The position numbers were made by a program, and so were the translations under genes. Of a stretch of 64,000 bases of DNA, positions 44,714 to 64,000 are shown in pieces. Position 1 is the stretch's first letter. Every line of letters begins with the position of its first letter. The notes beneath the pieces are model-generated. The model searched no databases, had not been told where the DNA came from, and saw only the letters and a list, made by a program, of their open reading frames with translations. The stretch is from assembly GCA_002224055.1 (NCBI GenBank), contig AZLU01000194.1:1-64000 (forward strand), written 5' to 3'. This stretch comes from Pezizomycotina sp. ARF18. Lineage: Eukaryota > Ascomycota.

Positions 44714-45617
44714 AAACCAGGTTTGCAAGGCAAAGGAGGTCGTGGGTAGAGAACTATCTCAGCGCAATTAGGCGTCAGCTTACCGGTATATGGCAATTTG
44801 GTGCATTTGCAATGTCAGTCTACATTTACTCATATGTATATGAAATATTTCAAGGGGCCCTATACTCATATTGTTGGGATATTTCTATCGGTTATATAAC
44901 ATTCCGTGTGGCCACGCAAGCTCTTCTTAGCAAACTATACGAAACAGACGGAACGCATTGACAGCCGTACTGATGCATCTCGGGAATGCATCGATTACAT
45001 TCTTGACAGATAGCAAAGGTGGCTCGTTGAAACATTGCTATTAACCTTATAGCCTCTTTTTATTAGCCATGTAGTGGAGCAACTTGAACGTGAGATGCGA
45101 GCAATCTTGCTCCTTTCTAATTTTTTAGCAGCCTAATATCTAACGATATCTTCACCTGAAACTTCAGGAATCATGAGTTCTTTTAACCTGAAACCCGAAT
45201 TGCTGTCCAATTGAAAGTTTAGCTTTAAATTTCATTATAGAGTTGTGGCAACAAAGAAGAAGGACTTTTCTATATTACCAGTTTATTACAGAGATTACTT
45301 TCACATCTGGAAGCCTGCTTCTGTCCTCCAAAGCTAAGCGTGAAGTGGCGTGATATCAAGGATCACCGCACTTGAGTTCGCCCTTCTAGGCATGCTCAAG
45401 CTTGTCACTCCACAAACCGTAAACCTCCGACCTCCGCTAGATTAGCTTCACTAGAAATCAATAATCTGTAGTTCTTCCCCTAATAACCAATTCCATATCC
45501 TTAGCCATTCCAAACAAAAGGAGAAAAAAAAAGCGCTCCATCAATCTATCAAAGAATCACTTTTCACACCAGAACTCACTTGGCTCTGTTATATCCCAAA
45601 ACTACAAAGTCTCAGAT
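44714..45617. other. No gene seen
   Basis: No frame over 60 codons and no repeat ends noticed. This is the border between the membrane-protein array and the Cys-motif cluster. Confidence 0.4.
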
Positions 45618-46148
45618 ATGTGTAACCATATCTGTCTCCGCGTTCACGACGCTTGCCGAGAGCGCTTCGGTAACGGGCAAGTCGAGCGCATTAGGTTCCC
45701 CGAGGCACCTTGCGACTGCAATGTCGAAAAGTTCTCAAGGGTAATACTCACGCGTTGCGACGAAGGTCCCGATGCACGTTACCCGCCTAAGTCTTGCAAA
45801 GACTGCAACATGATTAAGATAGCGCTGCGCGATATAAGCATACATATATTCGGTACGATGAGGCTCAGGGACATCAAGGCGTGCGAAAGTTACGTGTATG
45901 ATCAGCTGCGGGCACGGAAATACATTGGCTCAAGAGAAAGAGTATGGAGGTCGAGCATGAACAAGGATAATTCACCGGGGAGGTGCCACCTAGAAATGGG
46001 CCGTTCAGAGGCAGCAGGCAGAAGACGAGATATGTTAACGACGAGGAAGAGGGGGATGGCAATAGGAGACGAAGCAGCGATGAGGATACCCTGGTCGGCA
46101 GCGAAGACGAACAGTAAAGAGGGGGAAAAGTCAGTCAGATATTCTTAA
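45618..46148 (+). CDS. Cys-motif cluster member 1 (MC...CxC...C...CxxC), possibly broken in the tail
   Basis: ATG at 45618 begins MCNHICLRVHDACRERFG. The core is APCDCNVEKFSRVILTRCDE, then 12 residues from that Cys to CKDC, giving C-x-C-x(12)-C-x(12)-C-x(2)-C. The open frame has 176 codons. After about residue 110 the protein becomes Arg-rich, while the next frame is strongly acidic (NDEEEGDGNRRRSSDEDTL) and ends in its own stop near 46101, the sort of tail seen in other members. A frame change is therefore likely. No signal peptide or membrane segment. Function unknown; a small metal-binding or disulfide fold is inferred only from cysteine spacing. Confidence 0.6.
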   Translation: MCNHICLRVHDACRERFGNGQVERIRFPEAPCDCNVEKFSRVILTRCDEGPDARYPPKSCKDCNMIKIALRDISIHIFGTMRLRDIKACESYVYDQLRARKYIGSRERVWRSSMNKDNSPGRCHLEMGRSEAAGRRRDMLTTRKRGMAIGDEAAMRIPWSAAKTNSKEGEKSVRYS

Positions 46149-46379
46149 AGAGAGGAATCAAAACAACTGTTTGGCATTCATTATTAGCTGCATATTAATG
46201 GCGTCTCGGCGAATATTATATACTCTTACAATCACTTAGGCACACTCCCAAGGATCTCGATAGCTTCTAGTTAGAAGCTTAAAGGTTGAGAGGCATTGGT
46301 TCGGCCAACTAGATATGAACTTAATATTTTTAGTCTGAATTATTTTACCTTCGGATATCTTTACAAAAAAGCAAATAAA

Positions 46380-46779
46380 TTAGTTCAGCTTTACCTTGAC
46401 TTGGGCGTCTTGCGATTCACATAAAGGATGAGAACTCGCTCCCCCCCCCCGGGGGGGCGACTTACCAGAAATACGAAATATAGCACTTTCCCCTGCGTCA
46501 TCGTAACCAATACAAGATCCGTTAAGTAATAAAGCATAACGATCGTTGATAGTGGGTGCAACATTGTGAACCTTTCCCACGGAGATTGCTTCCGACAGGA
46601 GCGTCGTGTGGAAATCCCGACCGGAAGTCTTCCACGTTGATGCTAAAGTAATAACTTGATAGGGCCGAGCAGATACCAAAACCACTATAGTGATTCCCTG
46701 CCGCCTTGTCGAGCCATGAACAGAAAAACAACGCCATCAATGATCGTTTAGCTTTCACTCGAGAGGAACTTGTGCCCAT
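46380..46779 (-). other. Coding-like fragment, unidentified
   Basis: Two overlapping minus-strand frames (85 and 101 codons) occur. One ends NGSCIGYDDAGESAIFRISG just before a GTAAGT, so an exon ending near 46465 is possible. A C10G7 run lies immediately beyond at 46441-46457. No family recognised. Confidence 0.2.
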
Positions 46780-46989
46780 ATTAATGAAAGGAAGAGTAAT
46801 TGTAGAAGTTCCTTGGGGCCTATATTACCCACTGGAAACGGGTTTGAGCCATTGGTTTATTCAGACGGCTTCTTTTCTCCCGTGAGTGCGAATGTATGAG
46901 GTCGGTTAAATTGTCGGGATTTTCCAAGTCATTAAAATCATCGGAAACCCACCCAAGCCATGCTACATCGTAATGCCACTGTTAAAGCG

Positions 46990-47179
46990 CCTAATATGTA
47001 TTCTGCCTGACAGAAGTACGGCGGTTAGGTTTATCGAAAAACGTTTAAAAAAAAAAAATCGGGCGAAATTCCGGTTCACGATGCCAAGCGGCCCGTGCGT
47101 TTGTCAAAAGGAAACCCTGTATCTCTGTGAATTCATCGCTTATAATTTATGGCCAATTTTCAAGCTTCCTTTCGCCTAG
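46990..47179 (+). pseudogene. Possible Cys-motif cluster fragment
   Basis: The plus frame reads ICILPDRSTAVRFIEKRL and later PSGPCVCQKETLYLC. The C-x-C and the CIL start resemble cluster members (MCILRIIL at 60546), with ATA where ATG would be. The CxxC half is missing and the Cys spacing is shorter, so the link is weak. Confidence 0.28.
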
Positions 47180-49064
47180 TATCATGAATAGCAGTACCAG
47201 GGTTACAAGTCTACAGCTTAAACATGAAACAAGGAAATAAACGGCGAAGCTTCTTCCGGAACAGTACATGCGGGCATTAAGGATCGCCACTTTATGCCAA
47301 AGATAGATCTGAAACGCCTTTTTTATATCTGGTTGCTGGCCGAAGCCTGAAATTTGAATAGCCCCAGAATGAATTAAGTTCTAATTCATTGAGTTATCGG
47401 AATAATAACGATCATCAGAAGGGATCTTCTTAGTTATATCGTCGAAGATAATACTTTCTTGTTTGTGGACGCCGAGTAAGACGTCCAATTAATTATAACT
47501 GAGAAAGAGGAGTGGAACTGAACTCTTAGGAATGATCACAGTTGCAACGGTCCAGGGCTTACGGGAATTTAGAAGCTAATATCGTCGTATCGGACTGAAC
47601 TGCAAAGTAAACGCTGCTCATGAGCCGGTCAAAGCTCCCATTGGTGGTTTCGTCTGGCCTCGGCAGTAAAGTGCGGCGGTGGGAAGATATGATGATCAGC
47701 GGGCGATACGCTCCTGGGATCTCTTGGCCTAAGCGAAAAAGACACCAGCATTGACCCCTCGACTTGCTTAGGAACCTTGAGACGAGTTTCCTAATTCCGC
47801 AAGGATCTACGAAGTAAGAAGCCATGTGCTCTTACTCCAGAGCTTCCATGCACCCTCGAAACATCAAAAGGAATTTTTTACTGTTTTCTAGACGCTATAT
47901 TGAAGTGAGCAATCCGTTTTCTGCGTAGGCTTTTTACATGATCGTTTTATTTAGATTCAGTACAAGTCAGGCAATAAGCCAGAGAAAACTGAGAACCCTA
48001 AAAAGATTGGAAACCGGGCTGTAATCATAGCCAGAAAAAAAAAATTACACGCCTCCGGCTTTTTTTTTTGTTTTTTCTTGTTGAAAACCGCCGTATTTTT
48101 GCCATTAATGCCCATATCACGCTGGTTACCTAGTTCCTTATTACACCTGCATGGATACTGATTATGCGAGTGGAGAAGGTCTATACCCGGATTACCAATG
48201 TACTTAGATGTGAGGTGAGCTGCATAGCTTCTATAGCGACAGTTTTTAGTAACGGTGGTACCACTCTAGACCAAGCATGGGCATTTAGGCCAACGGGGCT
48301 GTCAATTAAACGTTCGGCGTGGGAAATGGCTTAGGGCATAACCTCGATTTCCTCTCCGTTTCTCTGGCCTTTCCAACTGATAACTTAAGCTATTAGTGCA
48401 GAGGCCTATTTAGCAAGATTCATGGCAATTCTTGCGTTACGTGCTAATTTCGGCATTTATGGACAAGATTTTGCGGTCAAAACGGGGACCTGTTTGGATT
48501 GTAGAAATATTCAAAGATGTTTGACACCCGCCTATAGGTAGACTGGATGTCAGAGATAATCGCAGCCTTATATTTGCCGAGCCTAGAAGTTATATAGCTT
48601 CTACAGACCTCGAAGGTGCATATGAACTCCGTCCCCCCCCCCCCCCCGGCGAAGGAAGTCTCTACGACGTCACTCGTTCTGAACCATATCGTATCCTAGA
48701 TAGTCTTACAGCGCGAACCTTGGCCACCATTTTATATTCCGATTGTCGTCGTTTTTGTACATCCGAATTTCCTCGAAATACTCCAGCCGTTTCGTCTCAT
48801 CTTCAACTGCGTATCTCTCTTCGTTTTTACTTATTTACCTCCCCGTTCTTTCTCTAATTTTCCAAATCTTTGTGGTTGCCTCGATGACGTTTGCAAGATC
48901 TCAATACCTCGATCCCGAACACATCAGTTGCTAATATATTGAACGACCCGATCAATTCTTTTTCGGTGCTCATTCTCGAATCCACATAGCTTCACATTGC
49001 TTGACAACTTCACTGATTTCTTCTTTTCTGGTAACGATATATATATCGACTTCGAATAACAACC
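47180..49064. other. No supported gene
   Basis: An 88-codon minus frame at 47559-47825 has no recognised family. A run of 15 C lies near 48632-48646. No mobile-element ends noticed. Confidence 0.35.
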
Positions 49065-51704
49065 ATGAAAGTCTCCACAAGAATTTGACACGGCTGGCCG
49101 CCGTTTCTCTCCTCTTCTTCGCGAACGATACCGCAGCTTTCTTCCCGACGAATCTTCTCTCCGGTGCCGGCCTGTTGGGTCACTCCCACACTCAGATTAC
49201 CCGGGACGCCTTATCGAAGCTATACTTGGAGCTCTTCCAGGTTCCGCTAGGAGACACTCCCAAGTCAATGGCGCAGGCTCGCGACGCTATCGCTGCCGCC
49301 AACGCCGACGTCGACAAAGACCAAGAACACGGAGCGAAGCATTTCGACGGCGAGTCATTTCCTGAAGGCCAAGACCGCCTTATAGAGTTAAGGCAAAGTG
49401 CATCTTCAGATGGTGAGAAACAACGACGTTAATGGCGCGCAGACGAGCCTTGGGCAGGCGCTCCATACGTTGCAAGATTTCTATAGCCACAGCAACTACT
49501 TTGAGATGAAGGAGGCGCACGCACCCTTCCTGCCTCTGCCACATTTAGGCATGGAGGCTATACCATTGCTCGATTAGCCGAATCGGTCAATACCTGCACG
49601 GACTGCGATGACGACAGTGGTATTCTAGGCTTCCTGAAGAAGCTTGTTACTTGCCCCAATTGCGCAAAGAATGTCGAACAGTCTAAACTTACGAGCGGCT
49701 ACTATTCCGGTGAGGATAGGGTCAAGACAAACACCCAAAGTGCTCACACGGCGGACCCTTCGACGGTAGCAGCGGCGAGGATATAACAAGTCGTGGACAA
49801 GGGATCAACAAGGACAGCTCCAGTTGTAAATTTAGTCCGCACTACCATTTGCACGTGCAAGTTGCGACTATGGCGGAACAAGCATCGATAATGTTCATCA
49901 AGGACGCTCTCACACGTTTTAACGACGAGCATGTGCGGGCTTTTTTCGGTGCTGATGGAAGCGCGACGGTTGTACGGAGTCCGGAGTCGAACAGCCAATT
50001 CAACGAGTCGCTGGTTGACGAAATTCCGACTACTACTCCGACCACGACATCACAGAAGCCTAGGAAGACCATCAACGTCGCGAAGCGGGGAGCTTCAAGT
50101 TATGAAAAACCGCACTGGTCCTTCGATAGCGTGGCGAACGTTCCGAAGGGTGGTCGCGTCTTCCTAGATGCTACCGCTGACCAGAGTCATGTTAGCGAGC
50201 ACACGCAGCGCATGTAGCTCACATGGCAGCCCACCATCAGGTGAAGGTTAGTGCTGTTGTAGCTGCAGGGTCCGCTGGAGCGGCGGCATACAGTGCTATG
50301 ACGCACCATTCCGGTGGACACTTGTTCAAGGTTTACGGTGATGAAGAGCAGCATATCGAACATTTCAGTAATTCCGTTGCTGCACCGCATACCGTTGACA
50401 TCGCCTTCATTCACGACGCCTTTACCGACGCGAAAAGGTCGTTCGAATTCGAAATACCTGTAGATTCTACGGTCGGGAACGTCTCCTTCATCGCCAGCGG
50501 CGTTGATAAGCTTACCGTCATGGCTCCAAACGACAAGACTTATTCCTCCGCGGCTGGTTCTTCTACGGAAGGACCGGTCAAAATTGTTGATTTAAAAACC
50601 AACAAGATGATACAGATTGGCCTAACCACGCCAGGCAACCACAAAGTCATCATATCGGCTTCTTCCGCGTGTTTGGCCTCTGAGTTTACTCTAACCGTCA
50701 CCGGCACTTCCTACTGGACCTCACTCACTTCCACTTTGTTGAATTAAATGGGCGACCGGGCCACATGGTTACTACCGAATCGAAGGGGCACCGGTAGCTT
50801 CACCAGGCGATTTAACAGTCGCATCGGCACTCATGTCCGGGTCGTACACGACCGCTTCCTTTTCTTTCCGCACGCCCTCCGGAGAAATCCTCTACGATAA
50901 CGTTCTCTCAGACCCGGAAGTGGTCTGGAAGGGGAGCAACCTTCCGACGAGTTCCTCGCGCCGTATGCTCAGGATGATGTATCTTTTTCGTTCCCTATGG
51001 ACCTCATGGATGAAATCATGGCGTACGACCCTTCCTTTCTGAACATGACATCCCTGGATCCACATTTTCCAGCATGCCGTTGCCCGAGATCCAACAGCCG
51101 TTTGTAGTCCACGTCACCGGACGCGATGTATCTGGATCGACCTACCAGCGCGTGGTACCGCGAACATATACCCCAGCGAGCATCCTCATTCAAGCTCAGA
51201 ATCTCCCGGAGACCTTCGCCACGACAGGGAAACGGTCTACAATTTCAGGATAACCAACGCCGGAGATTCAGATATCGTTGACCTTACAGCGCGGACAACC
51301 ACGGCCTTTTCTCTCGAGTATCTCCATCGACAATTCAGCTCGCAAAGGTGCCAGCAAGCTTGTTCAAGTCACGATAAGGCCACACGAGGGCGATGCCTCA
51401 GGAACAAACAATCTGATCGTCACGGCGACGAAGAGGAAAGGCGGATGCAAGAATTACGTGGTTATTAGCAGTCACACAAGACCAGAAAATCCAGAGTACG
51501 AGGATACGGACGGTAGTCGGAGAGCAAAAGGTGGAAGTTGACGTGATGAACGCACACGCCGAATTTGAGAAAACGGCCAACAACTCTGCTCCCACGGCGA
51601 CCCCTGTGCCATACCAAAGCTCAAGCGCGCGGGTTTCATCCTTCACGTCGAAAGCTACCATTTCAGCTGTGGTCATTCTATTCCTTATGTTCGCTTTCAT
51701 GTAG
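49065..51704 (+). pseudogene. VWA7-like secreted protein (von Willebrand A domain-containing protein 7 type), broken
   Basis: ATG at 49065 starts MKVSTR, and the following signal-like segment LTRLAAVSLLFFANDTAAFF is one base out of frame. N-terminal motifs are LLGHSHTQITRDALSKLYLE and DQEHGAKHFDGESFPEGQ (49170-49375), then DFYSHSN-type sequence near 49470-49500. At 49590-49710 come TCTDCDDDSGILGFLKKLVT and SKLTSGYYSGED. HYHLHVQVATMAEQASIMFI (49840-49900) and DALTRFNDEHVRAFFGADG lead into the VWA-like region, and a frame of 174 codons (50223-50747) covers later beta-sheet domains. The C-terminus has a hydrophobic tail (AVVILFLMFAFM) ending at 51704. Pieces lie in all three frames with several indels and stops. 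Fungal relatives are large secreted or membrane-anchored proteins of unclear role. Confidence 0.72.
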
Positions 51705-52104
51705 AGCTATACTTAGCCTTAGCAGTTTTTCGTCTTTTTTGTCTCTTTCGTTTTTAATATTGAGCTGTGTCACGGGACGGCGTTTTTGTTTCGGGAGTTT
51801 CTATTATAATAGCATTTCTTTTCCGGAATACCGGCCACTTATGCCACAGGGAGTTAGAATGTGTGTGCATTGTTACTTCACTAAAACTACAAGTTGCTTG
51901 ATAGCTCTTCTCATGTTCTGCTTTGCTTTTGTCTTGATTTTCTTCCCTGCTGTTTTCCAATGCTCTTCACCATATTCGAATTATCAAATGATGTATCTCT
52001 ATATTAGTGCTCTCGAATTAATACGTAATAATATTTGTAAATATACTCTTTCTTCAAGGCAATATAACTGATAACGATTATCACAGTAATAAAATGCCCC
52101 AAAA

Positions 52105-52470
52105 TTACTCCTTATTTTCAGTGGCCGGACTAGCCGCCAAAGCTTGCGTCATCCCTTCCCAAGAATCCTCCAAGTAACCCCACTCGACCAACATGGCGTG
52201 CATGTCCCACCACTTCTGCTGATAGTTCTTCGCGTCGACGCCCGACCACACCAGACAATCCAGTGTTCGGCAATCTTCCTCCACTATGTCGCACTCGTCG
52301 CAGTCTTGATCACTCGACAGTCTGTCGCAGCGCTGTGCTTCTATCGCGGCCCATATAATTTTGGGGCAGTCGCACCCGGCTATGCCTGAACTGGGGTCCT
52401 CGACGAGGGTACCTTTACCACCGCCGAGTCCGCAAGGACGCGTTAGTTTGAAGGTCATTCTAACGCACAT
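52105..52470 (-). CDS. Cys-motif cluster member 2, intact frame
   Basis: ATG at 52470 begins MCVRMTFKLTRPCG and runs 121 codons without a break to 52105. The core is GCDCPKIIWAAIEAQRCDRL followed by DCDEC, giving C-x-C-x(12)-C-x(8)-C-x(2)-C. The C-terminal half is acidic and rich in Trp (QQKWWDMHAMLVEWGYLEDS). There is no signal peptide. It is one of three members that read through in a single frame, and so the better target for expression evidence. Start chosen because all members begin Met-Cys. Function unknown. Confidence 0.68.
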   Translation of the reverse strand: MCVRMTFKLTRPCGLGGGKGTLVEDPSSGIAGCDCPKIIWAAIEAQRCDRLSSDQDCDECDIVEEDCRTLDCLVWSGVDAKNYQQKWWDMHAMLVEWGYLEDSWEGMTQALAASPATENKE

Positions 52471-53167
52471 CTTTGCGAGCCCGAATATATTCGTCTAAAA
52501 TCTAGGAGTTCGGTATCTTTCCGGCGTAGAACTTCGTGTTTTCGCAAAGGTAGCCAAAAGGCCAGCTGGGCACAATTGTCTTCGCGTTTATACACGATTT
52601 ATTGATTGTAGCTTGCTTGTAGGAGAAATGCTCGCGTAGGCTCGCGCAGTACAGTCTTCGGTCACTCTTTGGAGATCTGGTATCATGAACTGATTCAAGT
52701 TGTATCTGTACAATGTTGGTCAAACGGTATGTCAAGCGCAACATTGATTTGATACATCGATCCTTGCCTGAGAATGCGTGCGATATCAACATCCTTTTGC
52801 CATAATCCCAACGTATTTCACAATACTTTAAGTGAAGTAGCCTGGCTTTGTTGTCCTTCAATGAGTACATTCAGCTCTCGCACCTTTGTTTCCACTCATA
52901 TATTCGTTTCATCATTATCTAGGAAAGCTGACGTACGTATAGTTGAAAATAATTCCTGGAGCTTGAAACCTTTCGCAAACCGCGAACCTTTATCAAGAAA
53001 AAACGAGCAGAATTTTCACTACTCCTAAACAAAAGTTTTTCGTTTTTAAAAGCTGCCGAATAGATAATCCTAGCTAGCTTTCAAGCACTCCCGATAATCC
53101 ATCTCGGACCAGGATATAGCACCAAAACTCATACCCATAGCGAGAGCAACGTTAATTAAACCCCTAC

Positions 53168-53529
53168 ATGTGCCTCTGTATCCTTGTCACGATTTCTGAC
53201 GCCTGCGTCTGGGGATACTATTTTATTAAAGCTAACAAAGACGTTATCTACTGCTACCTGGGTTGTCGCTGCGCCAAATTAGCCTTCGATATCAGATTTG
53301 ATCGCTGCAACAAAACGTCCTGCACTGAATGCGACAAGTTAGAGAACTTCACGGAATCTTTCTACAAGAATCCACGGAAGAGACGGACGGACTCACCGAA
53401 CTCGATATCGCATACATGTTAAACATTCTGCCGCCACAGTTGAAAAAACATGGCGTTCTAGATAAAAGTCCGGACAAATTGTGGGAATCGTGCAGTATCG
53501 ATGGTGTTTCCTTCTCGAGAAACTTTTAA
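53168..53529 (+). pseudogene. Cys-motif cluster member 3, one frame change
   Basis: ATG at 53168 begins MCLCILVTISDACVWG. The core is GCRCAKLAFDIRFDRCNKTS followed by CTEC, giving C-x-C-x(11)-C-x(4)-C-x(2)-C. This frame stops at 53422 after a basic run. The tail expected by comparison (TDGLTELDIAYMLNILPPQL) continues in another frame to 53529, so a single indel near 53385 is likely. No signal peptide. Confidence 0.6.
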
Positions 53530-54013
53530 ATAAGCAAACCCTTGAATTTGATATTACTACGGTGATCAAAACCCCAAGTCTTATTTTGCATGGGCTTTGT
53601 GTCACCGCCTCTTAAAGTTACTCTCGTATTCTACCACTCGCTTGCTGGTTTAGCGGGGTTTTTGTGCGGGAGACGGTAAATTCGGAACTTTTGCACCATG
53701 GCTAAAACATCCACACCGCAATCCCTACCGAAACCACTGCGTTCTACATTCCCCAGCCAGAATTCCATCGTAATTTAATTCTCCTGCTACCTCAATCTCG
53801 CTACTTCAGGAGCGAAAATTATTACTCGCGATTTGACATTTCAATCCCCTGAATCTCACAATACAAACACTCAATCTTTTTCCCAAAGCTTCCTACTCAG
53901 TAATGTATCAAGTTCGTAACTCACAAAGTTAATAGCTGAGATTTTGGATAGAGATAATGTCACAAAGATGCACCTGACGCAAATTTCTTCCACAAGGTCC
54001 CGTCCCTCTGTTC

Positions 54014-54352
54014 TCAGTACCAATCGAGACGGATATAAATTCCTTGCGGCCCATGCCCGTACAGAACCGGTCCGGTTATCGCTAGAAGAATATCCTCGAT
54101 CCTTATTTTCTTCCTCCGGTGTTCCTCGTAGTCCATACACAGCGCGCCATAGCTATTGATCCGGTTGCAGAGCCCATGCAGAATAAAACATGGATGGCAG
54201 TAAGGGTTGCCGCAGAAGACTGGCTTGGCTTCGTAGACGTAGCCGCGATCGCAGGTGCAGAACGGGGTCTCGATTTTGAGCAGTGCATAGGGATGCCCGT
54301 TAGGTTTAGGAACGCAAGGGTGGAAAAAGGTGTAGTAGAAGAAGCGGCACAT
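54014..54352 (-). CDS. Cys-motif cluster member 4, intact frame
   Basis: ATG at 54352 begins MCRFFYYTFFHPCVPKPN. The core is FCTCDRGYVYEAKPVFCGNP followed by YCHPC, giving C-x-C-x(12)-C-x(4)-C-x(2)-C. The frame runs 112 codons to 54014. Two extra cysteines follow the core (HGLCNRINSYGALC). The tail is less acidic than in other members, so the true end could lie in another frame. Function unknown. Confidence 0.65.
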   Translation of the reverse strand: MCRFFYYTFFHPCVPKPNGHPYALLKIETPFCTCDRGYVYEAKPVFCGNPYCHPCFILHGLCNRINSYGALCMDYEEHRRKKIRIEDILLAITGPVLYGHGPQGIYIRLDWY

Positions 54353-56081
54353 TTTTGTTTTTGGAGACTCGAGGATGCGCTGCGTGTTTTTTTTTTTTTT
54401 TTTTCTAGGAGTGTATGCTGGAGTCTAGGACCGATCTAAGTAAGAGAAGGTACTGGAATTCTCTAAAATGCAGACGGTAGACTAGAATGACACCGGAAAA
54501 ATTTTCCGAAGGCTCACATAAAAGACTATGAGAATATAGGTTACCACGAAAAACGCGTTTGCTCGAAGAACGCAGCTTTGCTTCGGATTTGGACCATTTT
54601 GTTTCATGGTTTCAGTGTTTATTTCAATATCAATTCCGTTTCACGAATCAGAGCCCTTTTCTTTCGATCTTATTTTGAATCTCTGCTACGCAACATACCG
54701 TCTAGTCCAGGTTCAATTTCCGCCCATTTATCGCGGTCGAAGTGATACTCTCAATAGTTTCGATGGGCATTTGAAAGCCGAGAGGAGAATTTAGGCAGAA
54801 AATAGGTTATGTATCGGCATAGGACAAGAGTGAAACTTTCTGAATGATCGGTATGTTTCAAGACGTTAAGGCTGGTGCGAGCCTAACTACGACAATCATC
54901 TGTCAAGCCCCTAAAGCCATAAGCTCCGGTGCGGAAATCCGGCTAAGTTTCTGAGTTTTTGCGGTTAATGTATGAACTCGGAGGTGGGGAAACTGGAGAT
55001 TTCCCTTTTTTGATATATGAAGCTGGTATATGATTAGTCCCTAGATTTGGTTTTACTCTTAAGCTTAAGCTTACTTGCAGTTGATACGAAATAATATCCA
55101 CCAGCTCATAAAGGAGATTTGGTAGGAAAAGCAATAATTACCCCTGGAGCTATAGATTCTTAAAGTGCATCTTAATCTAACAAAATCGATTCTGCGGCGG
55201 ACAATTAGCTGTTTGAAGATATAATATCGCCGTGGTTGAGTTAAACTGGACCGGTGTATGAGTTGGCGTAATCTATCAGGTTGGATCTTATATTGCGACC
55301 TACTTCGTCTTTTGTAACCCTAATTTTTTTATTCAACTGACATTTGGATTTTTTTTTTTTTTCAAGCATGCCTGCTTTAGCAGCAGACTGTGATTCTGAG
55401 TATAATCAATTTTGGCATGATTCTAGTCCAAGCCCGCACGTTGTATAAAAGGTTCACAACGTTTGATAAAAAGAAAAGATTCCACAGGCTCCCCGAGCAT
55501 ATCATCGAGAGCTTCCTCTATCGCCCGATGCAAGAATGTATCCGTTCCGAAATCCCCTCATGCACCCTCTCCAGGTAGTTCTGGAGACCATTTTTGTGTC
55601 ATGTCGTTCTTAATTATAAATCTATTATTCCTCGTTCTCTAACGTAGTTATCATGGTACCATTATTCATGTCTGTTGGCCTAGACCAAAAAAAAAAAAAA
55701 AAAAAACATCAAGACTAGGGGAGTTCCCCTCCATACATGTAAGTTCTACACCAATAAAATAATTGAACTCTTTTCAACATTATTAAGAGAAAGGATTTTT
55801 ATAATTATCATTATTATCAATTATTTATTCAAGTTCCTGAAAGCGGTAAACGGTAGATATATATATCAATGGCACCTTGAATAATAATGGTGTTCAAAAT
55901 AAAAGACGTGCATGCGCGCACATGAAGATAAAAAAAGAGAAATTTTTACCCCAACTCCCCTCCCCTGGAAAATAAAGTTCATAGAGCAAGTCGATTTTGG
56001 ATTCTCTTAATACACCTAGTTGCAGACGGGAAAAAAGAAACGCTTTGCCGCAGTGTATCTTGAACTCTAACATCGAATTAC
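54353..56081. other. No supported gene
   Basis: Only short frames. A-rich and T-rich runs lie near 54388-54405, 55350 and 55687-55707. Confidence 0.4.
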
Positions 56082-56667
56082 TCAAGATTGCTGCTTTTGA
56101 TTAAATTCCCCAAACTTCTCAAACTCCCTCTCGCTAGCTTCATCAAGTATCTGATGCAAGACTCCGTTCCTTTCGAAATTTTCTCGGGCTGTTTCTCGGG
56201 CAGCTGCGGCCAAGTTCGATTCTACAGCCGATTTTTCAGCCCCCACATTTTCACAGATGGGAGTGACGTCTTTCGCGCTCGCGAGTTTATGAATAGGGTC
56301 AGCGATTTGTGAAATCTTGTTGTATTTGTCAGATGGAATTTTTTAAAACGTTTACCGCGATGAAGCGGGCTTATCATAAAGTATTTGCTGCCATTTCCGA
56401 TTCATTCGCATGTTTTCGAAACCGCTGAGCACTTATGACATTGGCTATTATCGCAGGAGACTAGGTTTGCCATGAGGGTAAGGACAACCAAATTACAATC
56501 TTCTCGAGGTTTAAACCGTTTGATTAATCTTGATTCTCATATCACAACACTCCTTCTCCTTTGAGAACTGCTGGGTATTCGATAATTCGGCTCAATAATA
56601 GCCATTGATCACCGTGAGACTTGCAAGGCTCGTAAAAAGTATATGTCGACCGAATGAGGTAACACAT
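56082..56667 (-). pseudogene. Cys-motif cluster member 5, degraded
   Basis: ATG at 56667 reads MCYLIRSTYTFYEPCKSHG. In the next frame near 56490-56410 the core PREDCNLVVLTLMANLVSCD then NSQCHKC appears: one Cys of the C-x-C is lost, then x(13)-C-x(4)-C-x(2)-C. A third frame carries an 80-codon charged tail (SQIADPIHKLASAKDVTPIC to FEKFGEFNQKQQS) ending at 56082. Too short to stand out in any single frame; recognised by comparison with its neighbours. Confidence 0.5.
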
Positions 56668-57858
56668 CTTAGCTAATCGACTACCGAAGATATTAGGGTA
56701 CTAGAATCAAAATGTCTTAGAATCGTCGGGTTCTGTGGTTGATTACCGCGGACTGGTGTTTGTTGGAACACTGAGAAGATGTGAGAGTTCGATATGTAGA
56801 TTGATGTATGTAGATGTGGTTGATGTCCATGGAGATGGATGGGGGGAACGAGGTCCCTTATATACACGGTGCTCTTACAGTGTTATCGTAAGCTATGCGC
56901 GGTCGAGCGTATACGTGTGCTCTAGAGTCTACCTCCGCCTCTTATATATCTCAGCAACATCTTGAGTTCAATTAATGCCCAATCATAGCAGGCCGATAAC
57001 TCCTATGACATAAATATATTAATATAGCTTGAGCTTCGGTGAGTATACGAATTTCAGTGACCGGTTCCAATGTCTCGCATCAGACTCGGTCCGTTCGTGA
57101 GTTCATATTGAGTATCGAGAATAAGGTCCATGATGTATTCTTAAACCTAGTCCTATTGTTCGTTCCCATTATCTCGCTCCCCAGCAGATATATTAGCAAT
57201 ACCACATTTTTACAAGCATAATTTCCATGCTTCATCTTAAGACCGCGAAAATTTACCATTTCGAATGGGCCTGGTCCTGAGAAATGGCCAGAGATAATTT
57301 CAGGGGATTGAAATACTTGCGCATGGCTATCGTGAAGTATTGAGCCACAAGTATTGAAAGCTCCTCTACTTTCTTCTCACTGTAGCAATCTTTCGACTAA
57401 TATAATGAGCAACAAACAAATTTGGGTAAATGTGATCTCCTTAATGCCGTCACCCTTGTGAAAGGATCAGTTAGCGAAGTTTTTGCGCCCTGAGCCCAAA
57501 AAATACATCGGATGGAAGTGATGCAACTGAGGTTCTTCGTTCAGGTTGGATGGACTGGCTCTCGTTCAGGTTGGATGGACTGGCTCTTTTTAAAAATCAA
57601 GTACCATTATTGACTACTATAGATTAATGAAAAGATTAGAAATATAGAAATATACTACTAATAGATGCCTTCTATCGACACGTGTTCGTACTTATATCAG
57701 CAATACCACACTTGAATCAATGGCGAAAATTACTATGACTATGCATTCTTCGTATGTACCTTGTAATCTGCCAACGCAAAAAGCTTCTTTAATCCTTTTC
57801 TATTGATTGAATTTTTAATTGGACCCTTTACACGATGCTCCATCAACAATAAGGTGCA
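56668..57858. other. No supported gene
   Basis: Short frames only, apart from a 25-bp tandem duplication listed separately. Confidence 0.4.
57538..57587. repeat. 25-bp tandem duplication
   Basis: Two identical units, cgttcaggttggatggactg plus gctct, lie head to tail at 57538-57562 and 57563-57587. No gene is associated; probably slippage. Confidence 0.85.
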
Positions 57859-58356
57859 CTACGAAAGGTGCCCACAAGGCGGACACCATTCTTGCGAAAT
57901 ACAGTCCGGATCCGAGTCAGATTCGTCCATATCCGGACCCATAGACTGACGAGTCCATAAATCTTCGTCTCCCGAGAACCGCTCTCCTCTAGCTTTTTAA
58001 TGGATGCTCCACGGAGTCGGGATAGAATTTCCATGTTGCTATCGAACTTGACTTGCTCCGGAATCCCTGGAAGCCTTACCTCCTCCGCAAGCAGAGGAAG
58101 GAAAGGGCCGCCTGTTCTGCAAACAAACCGCATGGTTTGCATTCCTTTTCAGACGCAAATAAATCCAGCTCCATATCGAAGGTGCTTATTATCGTCTCGT
58201 AATTCTCACACTTGCAACCTCAGGGGTTCTGGAGAACGGTATGGCGACTCCGAACGTATCACGATCTTGTTCCCCGTAGTAGGTCACTCCAATGACCCTC
58301 CATTCAAGCTTGCCGGCGTGATGAAAAAAGTATTTCCAGTGAATGCGTTGGCACAT
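57859..58356 (-). pseudogene. Cys-motif cluster member 6, frame-shifted
   Basis: ATG at 58356 begins MCQRIHWKYFFHHAGKLEW. The core GCKCENYETIISTFDMELDL then KECKPC lies one frame off from about 58222, without the middle Cys. Another frame continues KFDSNMEILSRLRGASIKKL. The last acidic tail reads DMDESDSDPDCISQEWCPPC and ends at 57859. At least two frame changes. The acidic tail resembles that of member 1. Confidence 0.55.
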
Positions 58357-58968
58357 CTTTTCCTGTCGGTGGCACGATTTTGAATTACCATTTCCGTTAA
58401 ATATCGGAGGAGCTGTTGGATTGGAATTTTCTCCGAATATGATATAGCAGATAGGTGATTATTATTTCTTAAAGGGGAAAGCACAGCTGTACCATTTATA
58501 TTCCCTATCCTCCAATTCAAGCTGATGATTTTACAGCTATTATGGGGTATCACACCACGAGGTGGTTGCGACAAATGGGCTCTAGGCATTTGCTATCATA
58601 CTGGCTCACCTCAGTTCTTTACTTGAATTTGGACTCCTTTTTAATACGATTTCAAGCTATCAAATAGACGACGATAAAGTCTAGAGGCAGTACTATTAAT
58701 GTTTTTTATCTCCGGTATAAATCAAGTTCAAAACTAGATTTAAAACTCATCTCAAGACATCTTTACGCGCTAGCAACGGATTCGTACTGCGTCGAGAGCA
58801 ATCACCCAGCCGAAATAAAAAGCTCGAAGATATTTCTGACAATCTAAGCTCCCGATTAGAATTTGGAAAGCACGGGGCGTGTCAAATTTACCAGAAACAT
58901 AATCTGTAGTCGCGAGAGAGTAATAAAGACGACAGAAACATGATTAGTTCTCCGATTGCTAAACATTT

Positions 58969-59656
58969 TCATCCAAACCTTCTCCAGTTCTCCCGACCGT
59001 TCCAGGGCCCTGGCCTAGGTCTACGATCTCGTCTCTCTCCGTCTAAAACTCGCGGTTGTACCCTTTCCTGCGCCTCACCCCACCCCCACGACCATCTTCT
59101 TGCCTTATGAATGGTAACCAATTTTCCTGCGGATAAACTGCGGAGGTTGCTGTTCGATAGCAGGTCGCTGCTTGGAGTCGGCGGCGGATGCTCATACCGT
59201 AGTATCTCGTCCAATGGCACGCCAAGCCCGGCTTGCGCACGCTGTAGTCTTCCATCCCCTCTCTGTCCGCGTTGATGATGACGGTTACCATTATTCTGCC
59301 TTAAAATCTCTTCTATGGGATGCGCCTCCGCGGGCCTCGGACGGTCCCTCCGTAAAGCCCCTCCAGAATTTCCCTTCTCCTATCTTCCATTTCTTTGAGG
59401 TCATCGCAGATATCTAATATATCTCTCCAGGTGACTGTTTCCGCCTGATCGGTTTCATCTCCCAGTAATCAGCGTTCACGTCGTTCGCTAATCGAAGGTT
59501 ACGGGAGCACGGGCGACACCACGCATCGCGGCACGGATGGACGACAAATTTTATGTAATTCTTTTCGGTGCAAGGGCAGTTGAAAAGGTTTCTGCGGATA
59601 TCTGCCAGCCTCGGTGTACGGCAGTTCGAACACTCTAGCTTCATATAGATACACAT
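58969..59656 (-). pseudogene. Cys-motif cluster member 7, intact core, shifted tail
   Basis: ATG at 59656 begins MCIYMKLECSNCRTPRLA. The core is NCPCTEKNYIKFVVHPCRDA followed by WCRPC, giving C-x-C-x(12)-C-x(4)-C-x(2)-C. The first frame ends at 59414. The next frame continues TWRDILDICDDLKEMEDRRR, and a third continues EAHPIEEILRQNNGNRHHQR to 58969, so the original protein was probably longer. The core itself is uninterrupted, so a truncated product remains possible. Confidence 0.55.
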
Positions 59657-60177
59657 TTTTTTTCTCTTTCTGAGTTACGAAATGCTTGCCGCTCTGAGCT
59701 TTACCAATCCAGCAAACTACTTATCACTCTAGGACACTCTATAGCCAGAAAATTGAGACTTTTCGATAATCCGAATGCTGCTGCTTATATATCTTATTTT
59801 CTTGATTTATACTGTTTATCTCGGTGGCCTGTCAACCTGGAATTCTTCTCTTGCATGAATTCATGCTGTTGAAAAATCTGCAAAGCTGATTTGCTGGTTT
59901 CCAAGACCTTCTAAATCAATATATTAATATTATTTTTAATTATTAATTATTCATGGATTTATGTGTCTCAGACGCAATAGTGCCTTGTGCAGTAATTAGC
60001 ACCGTCCATTGGTATTCATTAGTTGACATCCCGCGAAGTTAGACGAGAAAATACTATATTGTCGCAAGTTCTCTCGCCTAAGCATAAAAAATATCGTACG
60101 CTCAGTTATAATCGTACCAAGACGAAGATTGAATGTCCCGCCGCTGTCACTCCCTGAACCCAATTTCTATCCTCGCC

Positions 60178-60546
60178 TCACGAGTCAATAAGCCCATCCT
60201 CGGCCTCATACTCATCACAGGTCCAATCCTTCAACTGCTCCGCAACTTCTTCATCTCCGATAAGGTCATCAAACTCTTCCCACAGCTCGTCACCAATCAC
60301 CCTCCTTGCTCCTCAAGCGCGCTTTTGAACTTGAGAACGAGTTCCTTCGCGGGTCGCATATAGCGCAATCCCTGACATCGCGTCCCGTGGATGACGGCGG
60401 GAGGAGCTGGTAGAAAACTTTATCCTTGCATGGGCAGTCCTTGTGTCCGAGCTTGCTTTCGTCAAGCCGGTGTACGGGCCGCCAAGATCAGAGCCTGCGG
60501 GGTCTAAATGGTCAAAGTCCAGGAGGATGATGCGTAGGATACACAT
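60178..60546 (-). pseudogene. Cys-motif cluster member 8, frame-shifted
   Basis: ATG at 60546 begins MCILRIILLDFDHLDPAG. The core HKDCPCKDKVFYQLLPPSST then RDCAICD lies in the next frame; the middle Cys is absent. The tail GDELWEEFDDLIGDEEVAEQ then WTCDEYEAEDGLIDS ends at 60178 in another frame and is strongly acidic. At least two frame changes. Confidence 0.55.
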
Positions 60547-61282
60547 CCTGTTTGACTTTTGGGAATTTCTTGAGCGAGAGTGTCTTTTTGATGTGGATTT
60601 GTTATTCTAATAATGCTGAAGGCCGTCCGGGACAATGATAGTATAGTGTTAACTCGGCTTGCTCTTTTCGGTTTTTGTGCAAAGTTGTGTATGATTCCGC
60701 TTAATAAGTGTTAGATTAAGGATCAAGACCAGCCGCGAAAGTTTTTTTTATCGTAGATTTTCGTTATTATCGCATCCAGTGCTTTTGAGATGTATACAGA
60801 AACTCGAACGTGAACGTAGGAGCACTTATATAACCTTCTTCATCAGGAGCTCCGTTAAATTCAAAGCCATTCATCTCCAGCAACTTGAATATCCTTATTT
60901 CAAATCTCAAAGCTGGCATCACGAACTTTTTGTAACATGTTCCTCACATGATAATTCCTCTAACAAATACAGCTGCCGTTTTGTTTCCAGCGTTGACTCG
61001 TAACGAGGTCTTTGTCGTACTTCAATGTGTTTTGACCCCCGTCGGTCCTATCTTCGGAGAGAATTGTTGACAATCACGAAGCTCTTTGTCCTCAAGTGTA
61101 TAGAATCTGACCAATGATACAGCAGTCGAGACGGCTGCTGCAGCGGTCAAGAGATATTCAGAAAATTCCTGATCGCTCGAGATTTTATTCATGATAAAAC
61201 CTGAATCAAGTTTGAAAAAAAAAAAATTTTTTTTTTTTTGAAAGAATGTGCGTTATGTCAGAGAATCAAGATGAATAAAGTT
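60547..61282. other. No supported gene
   Basis: An A12/T12 inverted run lies near 61217-61240 just beyond the 3' end of member 9. No other structure noted. Confidence 0.4.
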
Positions 61283-61692
61283 CTACCGGTCCGGCAAAAG
61301 CCTATCTAGAACCGCAGCGTTTCTGTTCCAATGAGTCTTTGTCATTATCAAAGCGTCATTGCCCGACCGTCGCATCCTATCTCGATCCCCACTCCGGCAT
61401 CGCTTCCACCGGCACAAATCCACCCAACAACCTCGAAACACTCCCTCTTCCGCCCTCGGAATATTCATCTTGCACTCAGAAAAAAGATTAATCCTCGCCG
61501 CCATGCTTTTCACAGCAGTACAAGCATCGCAGTTCGGCCATATACACCCCCGAAAGCCGACGTAAACGTACGTTTCTCCGCACTCCGCGTTCTGACAAAC
61601 TGCGCAGCTATCTACCGTAGTTTTTCGCGCGGGGAGTTTGCCGTATTGCCCGCGGCGGCATGAGGTAATATGATTCTTGTGAAGCGGCACAT
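61283..61692 (-). pseudogene. Cys-motif cluster member 9, frame-shifted
   Basis: ATG at 61692 begins MCRFTRIILPHAAAGNTAN and meets a stop. The core continues in the other frame as AECGETYVYVGFRGCIWPNC then DAC, giving C-x(11)-C-x(4)-C-x(2)-C with the first Cys of the C-x-C replaced by Ala. The tail (VDLCRWKRCRSGDRDRMRRS) ends at 61283. One frame change lies between the start and the core. Confidence 0.52.
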
Positions 61693-62542
61693 CGCGAAAA
61701 AACTTTCTGATCATAAAGCTAATTAATTTCTTTCTTTCTTTCTTTTTTTTTTTCTTTTGCTTAATGTCAGTATAACACAGTTTTAGTAGCGGGGGAAATT
61801 TTGCTCTTCGTTCAGACCTCCGAAGAATACCTTATTGGGATCCTATTGTTGACTTTTGACTACTCCCGATTCTCTTTGTTGTCTCGGTTTGGAAAGCTAT
61901 TTTTCGAAAACAATCAGGTTTTGGAGTTCGATGCGCTGAAATGGTGAAATTGATAGTCAAAGGGTTACTATTTATTAATTAGTTCCGGGCATGCTTGATC
62001 GTCCATGGGAGTCAGTGCCGGCGTTGAATTGATCAATTCAGCGGTAACACATTTCATCATGAGTCTAATGATTGTATGCGTTGAGATCCAATAGACCACA
62101 TCAGATCCATTCTATCCCATTCTAGATGAATAAAATGTACCCGAAATTATAACGGCACTTATCCTGATATCGTGATTGAATACAGTTAGTTATATTAAAC
62201 CTATGAAGCAGCATATCACTAAAATAGAAAAGCAAGTCCTTCTCTACAACTTAACTTCAACGCTGAAATAGAGAAGTCGACAATAATGACATAACGAAGT
62301 ACATTGAATCGGGTTATAGCACCTCCGACCAATAGCCAGGCCGATTTTGCGGTATAGAATCTCTCCGAGTGATCCCCGAAAATCGCGAGGACTTCTTTTT
62401 CGAGATCATGATGTTCCCCAATCCCCTATAGCTACAATTCACCATCACGCCGAAACACTTGAAAGGTAAACCGAAAGGAAGAAAAGATCTAGGACGTCGA
62501 GGCAAAAGAGAAGATAACCCGATAATCAACCGCTTAAAAACA
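61693..62542. other. No supported gene
   Basis: A 78-codon minus frame at 62314-62550 has no recognised family. A T/C-rich run lies at 61728-61757. Confidence 0.4.
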
Positions 62543-62854
62543 ATGTGCATAAAACGTCACATAACCCTCGACTTCTTTCACACCCGAGCTGGAAAGGTGA
62601 GCGCTTCTGCGGCCGCGCCAGGAACCTCTCCACGGGTCCTTGCACCTGTGACAAGAAGCTCCTCCACCGGATCACCGTGAACACCTGCCGCAACAAACCT
62701 TGCAAACTTACTGCGACCCGCCGTAGGCTTCGCCGCCAGGTTTAATAGGTTCTGGGATAGAGAGTTGGAGGTCCCGCGGGATAGCTACATGTGGGACTAC
62801 TTGGCTAGGATTGTTGGTAGCAAAGATGGGGTTAATAAGTTGAGATACGCTTAG
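62543..62854 (+). pseudogene. Cys-motif cluster member 10, frame-shifted
   Basis: ATG at 62543 begins MCIKRHITLDFFHTRAGK. The core GPCTCDKKLLHRITVNTCRN then KPC lies in the next frame, giving C-x-C-x(12)-C-x(4)-C. The last Cys is displaced by an indel (YCDPP in the third frame). The tail FAARFNRFWDRELEVPRDSY to NKLRYA ends at 62854. About two frame changes. Confidence 0.53.
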
Positions 62855-63131
62855 ACTTTTGTGAGAGGGAGAGTTGTCTAGGATTTCTTTTAATGAAGGA
62901 GTTGTAATATGTTTGTGCTTTCCTCACTCAGCGTTACGATTTGTTAAATAGCAATATGAAAAACGGCTTGAGCGGCCGCTGTACGATAAGATAAAGTGTT
63001 GGCTAGTCATCGAGCCTTCAGAGTAGCATCCGTTCCGGTGTCTAGAAGACACATGCCTAATTGCTGAAATCTTGGTGTTTTATATTGCCCTTCTCGTACG
63101 ATTTAAAAAAAAAAAAAAAAAAAACTAACTC

Positions 63132-63521
63132 TCAGAAATACCCCTTCCTCCTGATCTCCTCAACATCATCCCACCCCTTGACATCGTAAAACATCGAAAG
63201 ATACCCCACGAACTCCCTCTTTGCAACTTCATCTATCGGCCAGCCCCAGTACCTGCGCTCCTCGAACCACTCCTCGAGGTTCTTCAACCGCGCGCAGAGC
63301 TCGCATTCGAAATCGCTGTAATGCTCCGCGTACTTGCCTTCGCAGGTATCATCGTGATCGACCCTGAGCAAAAGGTATGTTTTTTCGCACTCACATGTCC
63401 TCCCTTCCGTAGAATCCCAGTTTCCCACGTCCGCTTCTTCGACGGTCCAGCTGTGGCCTTCGGCTTTGTGAATAATTCGGGGTTCGCGGCGGGTTAGCCT
63501 GATTGTTCTTTCGATGCACAT
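63132..63521 (-). CDS. Cys-motif cluster member 11, intact frame, best reference
   Basis: ATG at 63521 begins MCIERTIRLTRREPRIIHKA and reads 129 codons to 63132. The frame is open further upstream, but the Met-Cys start agrees with the rest of the cluster. The core is RTCECEKTYLLLRVDHDDTC, then 12 residues to CELC, giving C-x-C-x(14)-C-x(12)-C-x(2)-C. The tail is acidic and aromatic (LEEWFEERRYWGWPIDEVAK), ending RRKGYF. There is no signal peptide or membrane segment. The protein looks complete and is the best member for a structural model or search. Function unknown. Confidence 0.72.
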   Translation of the reverse strand: MCIERTIRLTRREPRIIHKAEGHSWTVEEADVGNWDSTEGRTCECEKTYLLLRVDHDDTCEGKYAEHYSDFECELCARLKNLEEWFEERRYWGWPIDEVAKREFVGYLSMFYDVKGWDDVEEIRRKGYF

Positions 63522-64000
63522 TTTGCTCCTCTGTTTCTTTCTTTTTTTTTTTTTTTGAGTAATCTCAGGGGGAAGCTTTTGTCTAGATTTTACGATACTC
63601 TGAGCGGCTTCGTCTTTGGATGTCTTTTTCGCTGTTTTAGGATTTTCTTGGAGAGATTCTGTCGCTTTAGTCAAAAACTGTAAGGTAGGGAAAAACTTAA
63701 AATCAGAATTAGAAAAGGAAAATGTGACGGTTGTATAGATAAATACATCAAGACACACATGCATAGCTATAATAAAGGATACTTAACTGCAAGCGATCTT
63801 CAATCCTCTCGAAAACATAACAAGCTTGTCACTCGATAGCTTTGCATCTACTTGACACGCATCTCACCTCGACCTCCAGATCGTGGCTGGACCGAAGATA
63901 TACCCGAAAATTCTAACAGATTTACAAGACAGTAACAAAGGCTTCGTAAAGACCTAAGAAGTATTAGCATCATTATAAAAATTTTATCTTTCCTATTTGG
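63522..64000. other. Upstream region of member 11; nothing else seen
   Basis: An A/T-rich run (T14) lies at about 63543-63556, in the likely 5' region of member 11. No other feature. Confidence 0.35.

What the first reader, a model, noticed from the sequence alone, without database searches (positions are those of the whole stretch)
45618..63521. A cluster of at least eleven genes of an unrecognised small Cys-motif family
Seen directly: eleven loci in 18 kb, on both strands, start Met-Cys and carry, usually 20 to 60 residues later, C-x-C-x(11,14)-C-x(4,12)-C-x(2)-C or a version missing one Cys. In six loci (53168, 54352, 56667, 59656, 61692, 62543) the third gap is exactly four residues. Sequences between the cysteines differ greatly, so chance or a recent low-copy duplication does not explain the pattern. 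I know of no named family with this arrangement and no signal peptide is visible. Inference: a fast-evolving metal-binding or disulfide-stabilised small protein family.
Basis: partly seen in the sequence, partly recalled or inferred. Interest (0 to 1): 0.88.

Follow-up and report, generated by a model that had tools for sequence, protein, structure and literature searches.

The report
Unnamed cluster of small cysteine-rich proteins
Eleven neighbouring genes in what looks like a fungal genome encode very different small proteins that share one cysteine pattern and probably one layout, perhaps a zinc-held module inside the cell, and about half of them look broken, most likely because the sequence is missing single bases.

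Summary
Eleven ATG-Cys loci lie at 45.6-63.5 kb, each followed by a cysteine core. One rule applied to every ATG-TGY site finds 10 of 22 at or above 45 kb, 0 of 29 below it, and 0.04 expected in shuffles; the eleventh has a weaker core. In six loci the core is in frame with the start. In five it lies one frame back, always the same way. A beta-glucosidase gene in the same window needs 32 frame corrections, 31 of them for missing bases, with 2 stops in 742 aligned codons, so missing bases in the sequence explain the breaks better than decay.

Similarity beyond the cysteines is real, though too weak for leave-one-out profiles to recover an intact member. No Pfam, solved-structure or fold match was found. 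The better model (pLDDT 66) is three strands, a CxxC at a helix start, then two more helices. I read it as an intracellular zinc-binding module, partly because His stands near the second Cys position in three or four loci, all frame-broken, and because most starts are too polar for a signal peptide. Zinc and function are inferred. Fungal proteomes could not be searched.

The parts
45618..46148 (+). Locus 1: MC-x10-C, CxC-x12-C-x12-CxxC in frame; 176 aa ORF, C-terminal part uncertain
52105..52470 (-). Locus 2: MC-x10-C, CxC-x12-C-x8-CxxC in frame; 121 aa
53168..53422 (+). Locus 3: MC-x10-C, CxC-x11-C-x4-CxxC in frame; by eye the C-terminal part goes on one frame back (ORF 53329-53529)
54014..54352 (-). 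Locus 4: MC-x10-C, CxC-x12-C-x4-CxxC in frame; 112 aa
56402..56667 (-). Locus 5: Met-Cys and a second Cys (residue 15) in frame 0; Cx4Cx2C (56429-56455) one frame back; no clear CxC; the weakest member by motif
58130..58356 (-). Locus 6: Met-Cys in frame 0, His near the second Cys position; CxC..CxxC (58130-58216) one frame back, middle Cys not seen
59414..59656 (-). Locus 7: Met-Cys, C9, C12, CxC-x12-C-x4-CxxC in frame; by eye the C-terminal part goes on one frame back
60178..60546 (-). Locus 8: Met-Cys in frame 0, His near the second Cys position; CxC..CxxC (60356-60436) one frame back, middle Cys not seen; by eye a helix-like C-terminus back in frame 0
61283..61692 (-). Locus 9: Met-Cys in frame 0 with His near the second Cys position, but a Cys lies at the matching place one frame back; C-x11-C-x4-CxxC (61520-61582) one frame back, first Cys of CxC not seen
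62543..62854 (+). Locus 10: Met-Cys in frame 0, His near the second Cys position; CxC-x12-C-x4-C (62641-62703) one frame back; by eye C-terminus back in frame 0
63132..63521 (-). Locus 11: Met-Cys, CxC-x14-C-x12-CxxC in frame; neither Cys nor His at the second position; 129 aa; basis of the better structure model

Best explanation
Shown: eleven small loci on both strands share a start-anchored arrangement, Met-Cys, a stretch with alternating hydrophobic residues, in most a second Cys or His near residue 11-15, C-x-C, a stretch with column similarity, Cys, then C-x2-C before a stretch predicted as helix. Inferred: they are one tandem family that spread by duplication and diverged until almost only the cysteines and the secondary-structure pattern remained. 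The Cys/His set holds zinc and stabilises a small intracellular beta-beta-beta-alpha module with helices behind it, and the module acts by binding other proteins rather than as an enzyme. Fast divergence and clustering suggest, as the most likely use, a conflict role such as non-self recognition or defence inside the fungus; this last step is a guess. The frame breaks in five loci are most likely errors of the sequence (missing single bases), not decay.
For: Motif far above chance and confined to 18 kb. Column similarity beyond cysteines: start block of 11 loci, z about 5.4-5.5, none of 5000 or 3000 permutations as high, against a maximum z of 3.51 in 200 sets drawn from 228 other ATG ORFs and 2.02 in 100 sets drawn from 29 other Met-Cys sites; block after CxC, 10 loci, P 0.0018; block after CxxC, 9 loci, none of 5000. 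A profile of the six intact members ranks the ten start and core pieces of the five unused loci above the other pieces (Mann-Whitney P 1.6e-6, not corrected for piece length). Purine at -3 in 10 of 11 starts. Model of locus 11: strands 3-11, 25-34, 48-55, helices 70-90, 98-109, 117-126, pLDDT 66.1, with C73 and C76 at the first helix start. The weaker model of locus 4 (pLDDT 47.6) also has strands before a helix that begins at 53, beside C52 and C55. His near the second Cys position in loci 6, 8 and 10. Deletion-type frame breaks in an unrelated gene.
Against: Leave-one-out profiles did not recover any of the 6 intact members (best rank 9, E 0.73), and among the unused pieces only one reaches E below 0.1 (62543 core, E 0.043). 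The second hit outside the training set is a non-member piece (15614+, E 0.12). No DNA similarity among the loci beyond overlapping flanks, only 14-26 nt matches at E 0.011-0.46. The structure models are of low to middling confidence and match no known fold. The Cys-to-His argument is thin: the loci with His are all frame-broken, locus 9 has a Cys at the matching place one frame back, and locus 11 has neither. Metal binding and the conflict role have no direct evidence. Breaks in the glucosidase (about 1 per 75 nt) are denser than in the family loci.
Confidence: 0.52

Rival explanations
1. A disulfide-stabilised, secreted family (effector or antifungal type) that leaves the cell by an unconventional route or by a leader not recognised here.
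For: Small, cysteine-rich, clustered and fast diverging. Starts of 53168 and 60546 are fairly hydrophobic. Unconventionally secreted effectors of filamentous pathogens are reported (PMC4348438, seen only in the search listing and start of abstract).
Against: Charged residues break up most starts; a shared Cys at residue 2 would be lost if a leader were cut off (inference); His stands near one Cys position in three or four loci, a thin argument because those loci are frame-broken.
Confidence: 0.22
2. A decaying cluster: a former family of which five of eleven genes are now frameshifted pseudogenes.
For: Five loci have Met-Cys and core in different frames; similarity among members is weak.
Against: All five shifts go the same way, and a beta-glucosidase with 351 of 742 aligned codons identical to a solved enzyme shows 31 deletion-type to 1 insertion-type breaks with 2 stops, which fits sequence error better than decay.
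Confidence: 0.15
3. Introns, or programmed -1 frameshifting, join the two frames in the five broken loci.
For: Same direction of the shift in 5 of 5.
Against: Models with one GT..AG intron of 40-130 nt and a branch-like site scored at best 6.6 bits (56667), 2.5 (62543), 2.4 (61692) and 0.4 (60546), and no intron model was listed for 58356. The same type of break occurs many times in an unrelated enzyme gene. Two-intron models were not tried.
Confidence: 0.07
4. A metallothionein-like metal store rather than a folded module.
For: Small, Cys-rich, CxC and CxxC units.
Against: Only six or seven shared Cys in 80-130 residues, with column similarity outside the cysteines and predicted strands and helices.
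Confidence: 0.06

Closest known systems
Treble-clef and related zinc fingers (RING, zinc-ribbon and similar; recalled)
   Same: Two-cysteine knuckle, strands, and a CxxC at the first turn of a helix. The one chain listed for locus 4 in a permissive search was a RING finger protein 31 chain over residues 33-80, but at E 0.71.
   Different: Knuckle is C-x-C, not C-x2-C; the N-terminal Met-Cys and the third core Cys have no counterpart that I know of; no significant sequence match and no fold match.
Unnamed fungal predicted proteins that begin Met-Cys and carry C-G-H/C and a later C-x2-C (recalled, not checked by any search)
   Same: Met-Cys start, short strand, second ligand near residue 10, later CxxC before a helix.
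   Different: No record could be compared here; whether they are the same family is open.
Small secreted cysteine-rich fungal proteins (effectors, antifungal peptides; recalled)
   Same: Size, cysteine content, clustering, fast divergence.
   Different: No clear signal peptide in 9 of 11 by hydropathy; shared Cys at residue 2.

Membership tests
Treble-clef zinc fingers | Zinc knuckle, beta-hairpin, then two ligands at the first turn of a helix | tested here: inconclusive
   Order of elements fits in models of pLDDT 66.1 and 47.6; no model coordinates were among the files in the Python box, so ligand distances were not measured; Foldseek gives no PDB match (best E 4.9)
Treble-clef zinc fingers | Sequence match to a curated family | tested here: not met
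   Pfam rows for the intact proteins are far below cut-off (Mcm10 E 0.39, MGA_dom E 0.019 at 15.4 of 27 bits); six frames of 44001-63990 matched only the Het-C-like gene
Treble-clef zinc fingers | Binds zinc | not testable with these tools
   needs purified protein
Secreted small cysteine-rich proteins | N-terminal signal peptide | tested here: inconclusive
   Hydropathy only, no signal-peptide predictor: 9 of 11 starts have a best 10-residue mean below 1; 53168 (2.62) and 60546 (2.22) are exceptions
Recalled fungal Met-Cys proteins | Sequence relation to named fungal records | not testable with these tools
   no fungal collection is held; capped pattern scans of the viral and prokaryote collections showed nothing like it in the part returned

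The most novel reading that the evidence does not exclude
A new fungal protein fold family: a start-anchored zinc module (beta-beta-beta-alpha with a helical tail) without a known structural relative, diversified in a tandem array around a Het-C-like gene and used inside the cell for non-self recognition or another genetic conflict.
Probability: 0.15. Interest if true: 0.75.

Novelty: new variant of a known kind. Interest (0 to 1): 0.45.

Why it matters
If the family is as read here, it adds a class of intracellular, fast-diverging zinc modules to fungal tandem families, which to my knowledge have mostly been studied as secreted proteins. It also shows that families which profile searches nearly miss can be found from cysteine spacing anchored at the start codon. 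The case warns that frame breaks in draft sequence can pass for pseudogenes.

Tried and rejected
Leave-one-out HMMER profiles failed for all 6 intact members; I kept this as a negative result and added column tests anchored on the cysteines and a test on the five unused loci (run while checking this report). Single-intron models for the broken loci gave no convincing score. 44241+ (CRSARCPLC) and 11447- (CLPQICRTC) also show Cx4Cx2C, but no ATG-TGY site in that part of the window passes the rule, so I left them out. Homopolymers do not mark the glucosidase breaks (mean longest run 2.5 against 2.6 for all positions), so I name no sequencing technology. Literature: seven searches about such families listed no paper that appears to describe one; three of them returned no paper. 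One further search was about assembly errors. Only listings and starts of abstracts were seen and no paper was opened. Narrow term lists may have missed papers.
Full report
What was checked. The finding names eleven Met-Cys loci with a cysteine core between 45618 and 63521. A motif search that did not ask for Met-Cys found six strict cores in the six frames of the window, all in that interval and all with an in-frame Met-Cys upstream; 50 base shuffles gave a mean of 0.14 and at most 2. A frame-free rule starting from ATG-TGY, written after the loci had been seen but applied to every site, found 10 of 22 sites at or above 45 kb and 0 of 29 below it; 300 dinucleotide shuffles of 45-64 kb gave a mean of 0.043 and at most 2. 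Locus 62543 fails that rule by its last Cys but shows Met-Cys and, one frame back, CxC-x12-C-x4-C. With 58356 and 60546, which the finding does not name, the count is exactly eleven. Met-Cys is a condition of the second rule, but not of the first.

Frames. In six loci (45618, 52470, 53168, 54352, 59656, 63521) start and core share a frame. In five (56667, 58356, 60546, 61692, 62543) the core is one frame back, in the same direction each time. To see whether this is peculiar to the family, I aligned a GH3 beta-glucosidase gene in the same window (about 19.4-21.75 kb, minus strand; Pfam, solved relatives) to chain 3abz with a frame-tolerant alignment whose penalties are the same for missing and extra bases. 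It runs end to end with 351 of 742 aligned codons identical, 2 stops and 32 frame breaks: 28 single-base and 3 two-base deficits and 1 excess. Decay would be expected to leave more stops and more insertions, so missing bases in the sequence are the simpler reading; reads would be needed to prove it. The breaks are not marked by homopolymers, so I do not name a cause. Pieces of the neighbouring Het-C-like gene also lie in three frames, though introns may add to that. ORF ends and missing cysteines in this window should not be trusted.

Is it one family? HMMER profiles built from five of the six intact members did not recover the sixth above noise in any of six trials (two not listed at all, others ranked 9, 11, 230 and 307; best E 0.73). 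There is no DNA similarity beyond overlapping flanks, only matches of 14-26 nt at E 0.011-0.46. On the other side, a profile of the six intact members, run against 3186 stop-to-stop pieces of the window, places the core pieces of the five unused loci at ranks 1 (62543), 9 (56667), 48 (60546), 66 (61692) and 211 (58356) among the 3180 pieces outside the training set, and their start pieces at 59, 15, 1668, 360 and 252 in the same order; Mann-Whitney P is 1.6e-6, without correction for length, and only the first has E below 0.1. Blocks anchored only on Met, CxC and CxxC are more alike by column than their own permutations: start block of 11 loci, none of 5000 as high; block after CxC, 10 loci, P 0.0018; block after CxxC, 9 loci, none of 5000. 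For the start block, 200 sets from 228 other ATG ORFs of this window reached at most z 3.51 and 100 sets from 29 other Met-Cys sites at most 2.02, against 5.5 for the family. The other two blocks had no such control. By eye, what is kept is alternating hydrophobic residues after Met-Cys and, in most members, an aromatic residue at +4 or +5 after CxC. The -3 base is a purine in 10 of 11.

What it looks like. An alignment led by locus 11 gave a model of mean pLDDT 66.1, pTM 0.56: strands 3-11, 25-34 and 48-55, helices 70-90, 98-109 and 117-126, so that C2 lies at the first strand, C43 and C45 before the third strand, C60 after it, and C73/C76 at the start of the first helix (positions). The model led by locus 4 is poor (pLDDT 47.6) but also puts strands before a helix that starts beside its CxxC. 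Foldseek found nothing at E 0.001 or better in the PDB (13 rows up to E 10, best 4.9) or among viral protein models (47 rows, best 1.2); no library of predicted cellular proteins was on hand. Sequence searches gave no credible match: solved structures listed a RING finger protein 31 chain at E 0.71 for locus 4, phosducin-like protein at 0.83 and integrin beta-6 at 2.2 or more for the first alignment and nothing up to E 1 for the second; Pfam rows were below cut-off; NCBIfam gave one chance-level row.

How it may work. Near the second Cys position, loci 58356, 60546 and 62543 have His and no nearby Cys in another frame; 61692 has His in frame but a Cys at the matching place one frame back, so it should not be counted firmly. 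Exchange of Cys for His is common among zinc ligands and not expected of a disulfide (general knowledge), but these loci are all frame-broken and locus 63521 has neither residue there, so the argument is thin. Most starts are too polar for a signal peptide. I favour an intracellular zinc-stabilised interaction module (about 0.6 for zinc, about 0.25 for a conflict role; my own estimates). No step of function is shown.

Setting. The only gene that Pfam recognised in 44001-63990 lies inside the cluster at about 49.2-50.8 kb on the plus strand, with matches to VWA7_N, Het-C and a hemicentin domain.

Against known things. The layout resembles treble-clef zinc fingers but has no significant sequence or fold match, so I do not file it there. 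From memory, many fungal genomes hold unnamed Met-Cys proteins with a similar layout; if that is right, this cluster is a local expansion of something widespread and uncharacterised. No call could test it.

Noticed in passing
19400-21750 (minus strand): GH3 beta-glucosidase with PA14 and Fn3-like matches, collinear with 3abz, with 32 frame breaks of which 31 are missing bases.
   Followed up: yes
48900-51700 (plus strand): Gene with VWA7_N, Het-C and hemicentin-type matches spread over three frames, sitting between locus 1 and locus 2 of the cluster.
   Followed up: partly
34143-35217, 38656-39462, 42478-44111 (plus strand): Three tandem copies of a probable membrane protein, seen by eye from related stretches such as TASDTLVSPKL and TTSDTLVSPKL; no Pfam match at E 0.01.
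   Followed up: partly
1-32000: Dinucleotide indices TpA/ApT 1.0 and 0.93 with (CpA+TpG)/(ApC+GpT) 0.97 and 0.99, near the thresholds I recall for repeat-induced point mutation; 32-64 kb shows 0.8 and 1.1-1.2.
   Followed up: no
57903 (minus strand): A further C-x5-C-x2-C about 450 nt after the start of locus 58356; it may be that gene's C-terminus or a remnant of another.
   Followed up: no
30438-31259 (minus strand): Longest listed ORF of the first 45 kb (273 aa), Gly/Asp/Ser-rich with repeated FGGQ-type units, no Pfam match at E 0.01.
   Followed up: no
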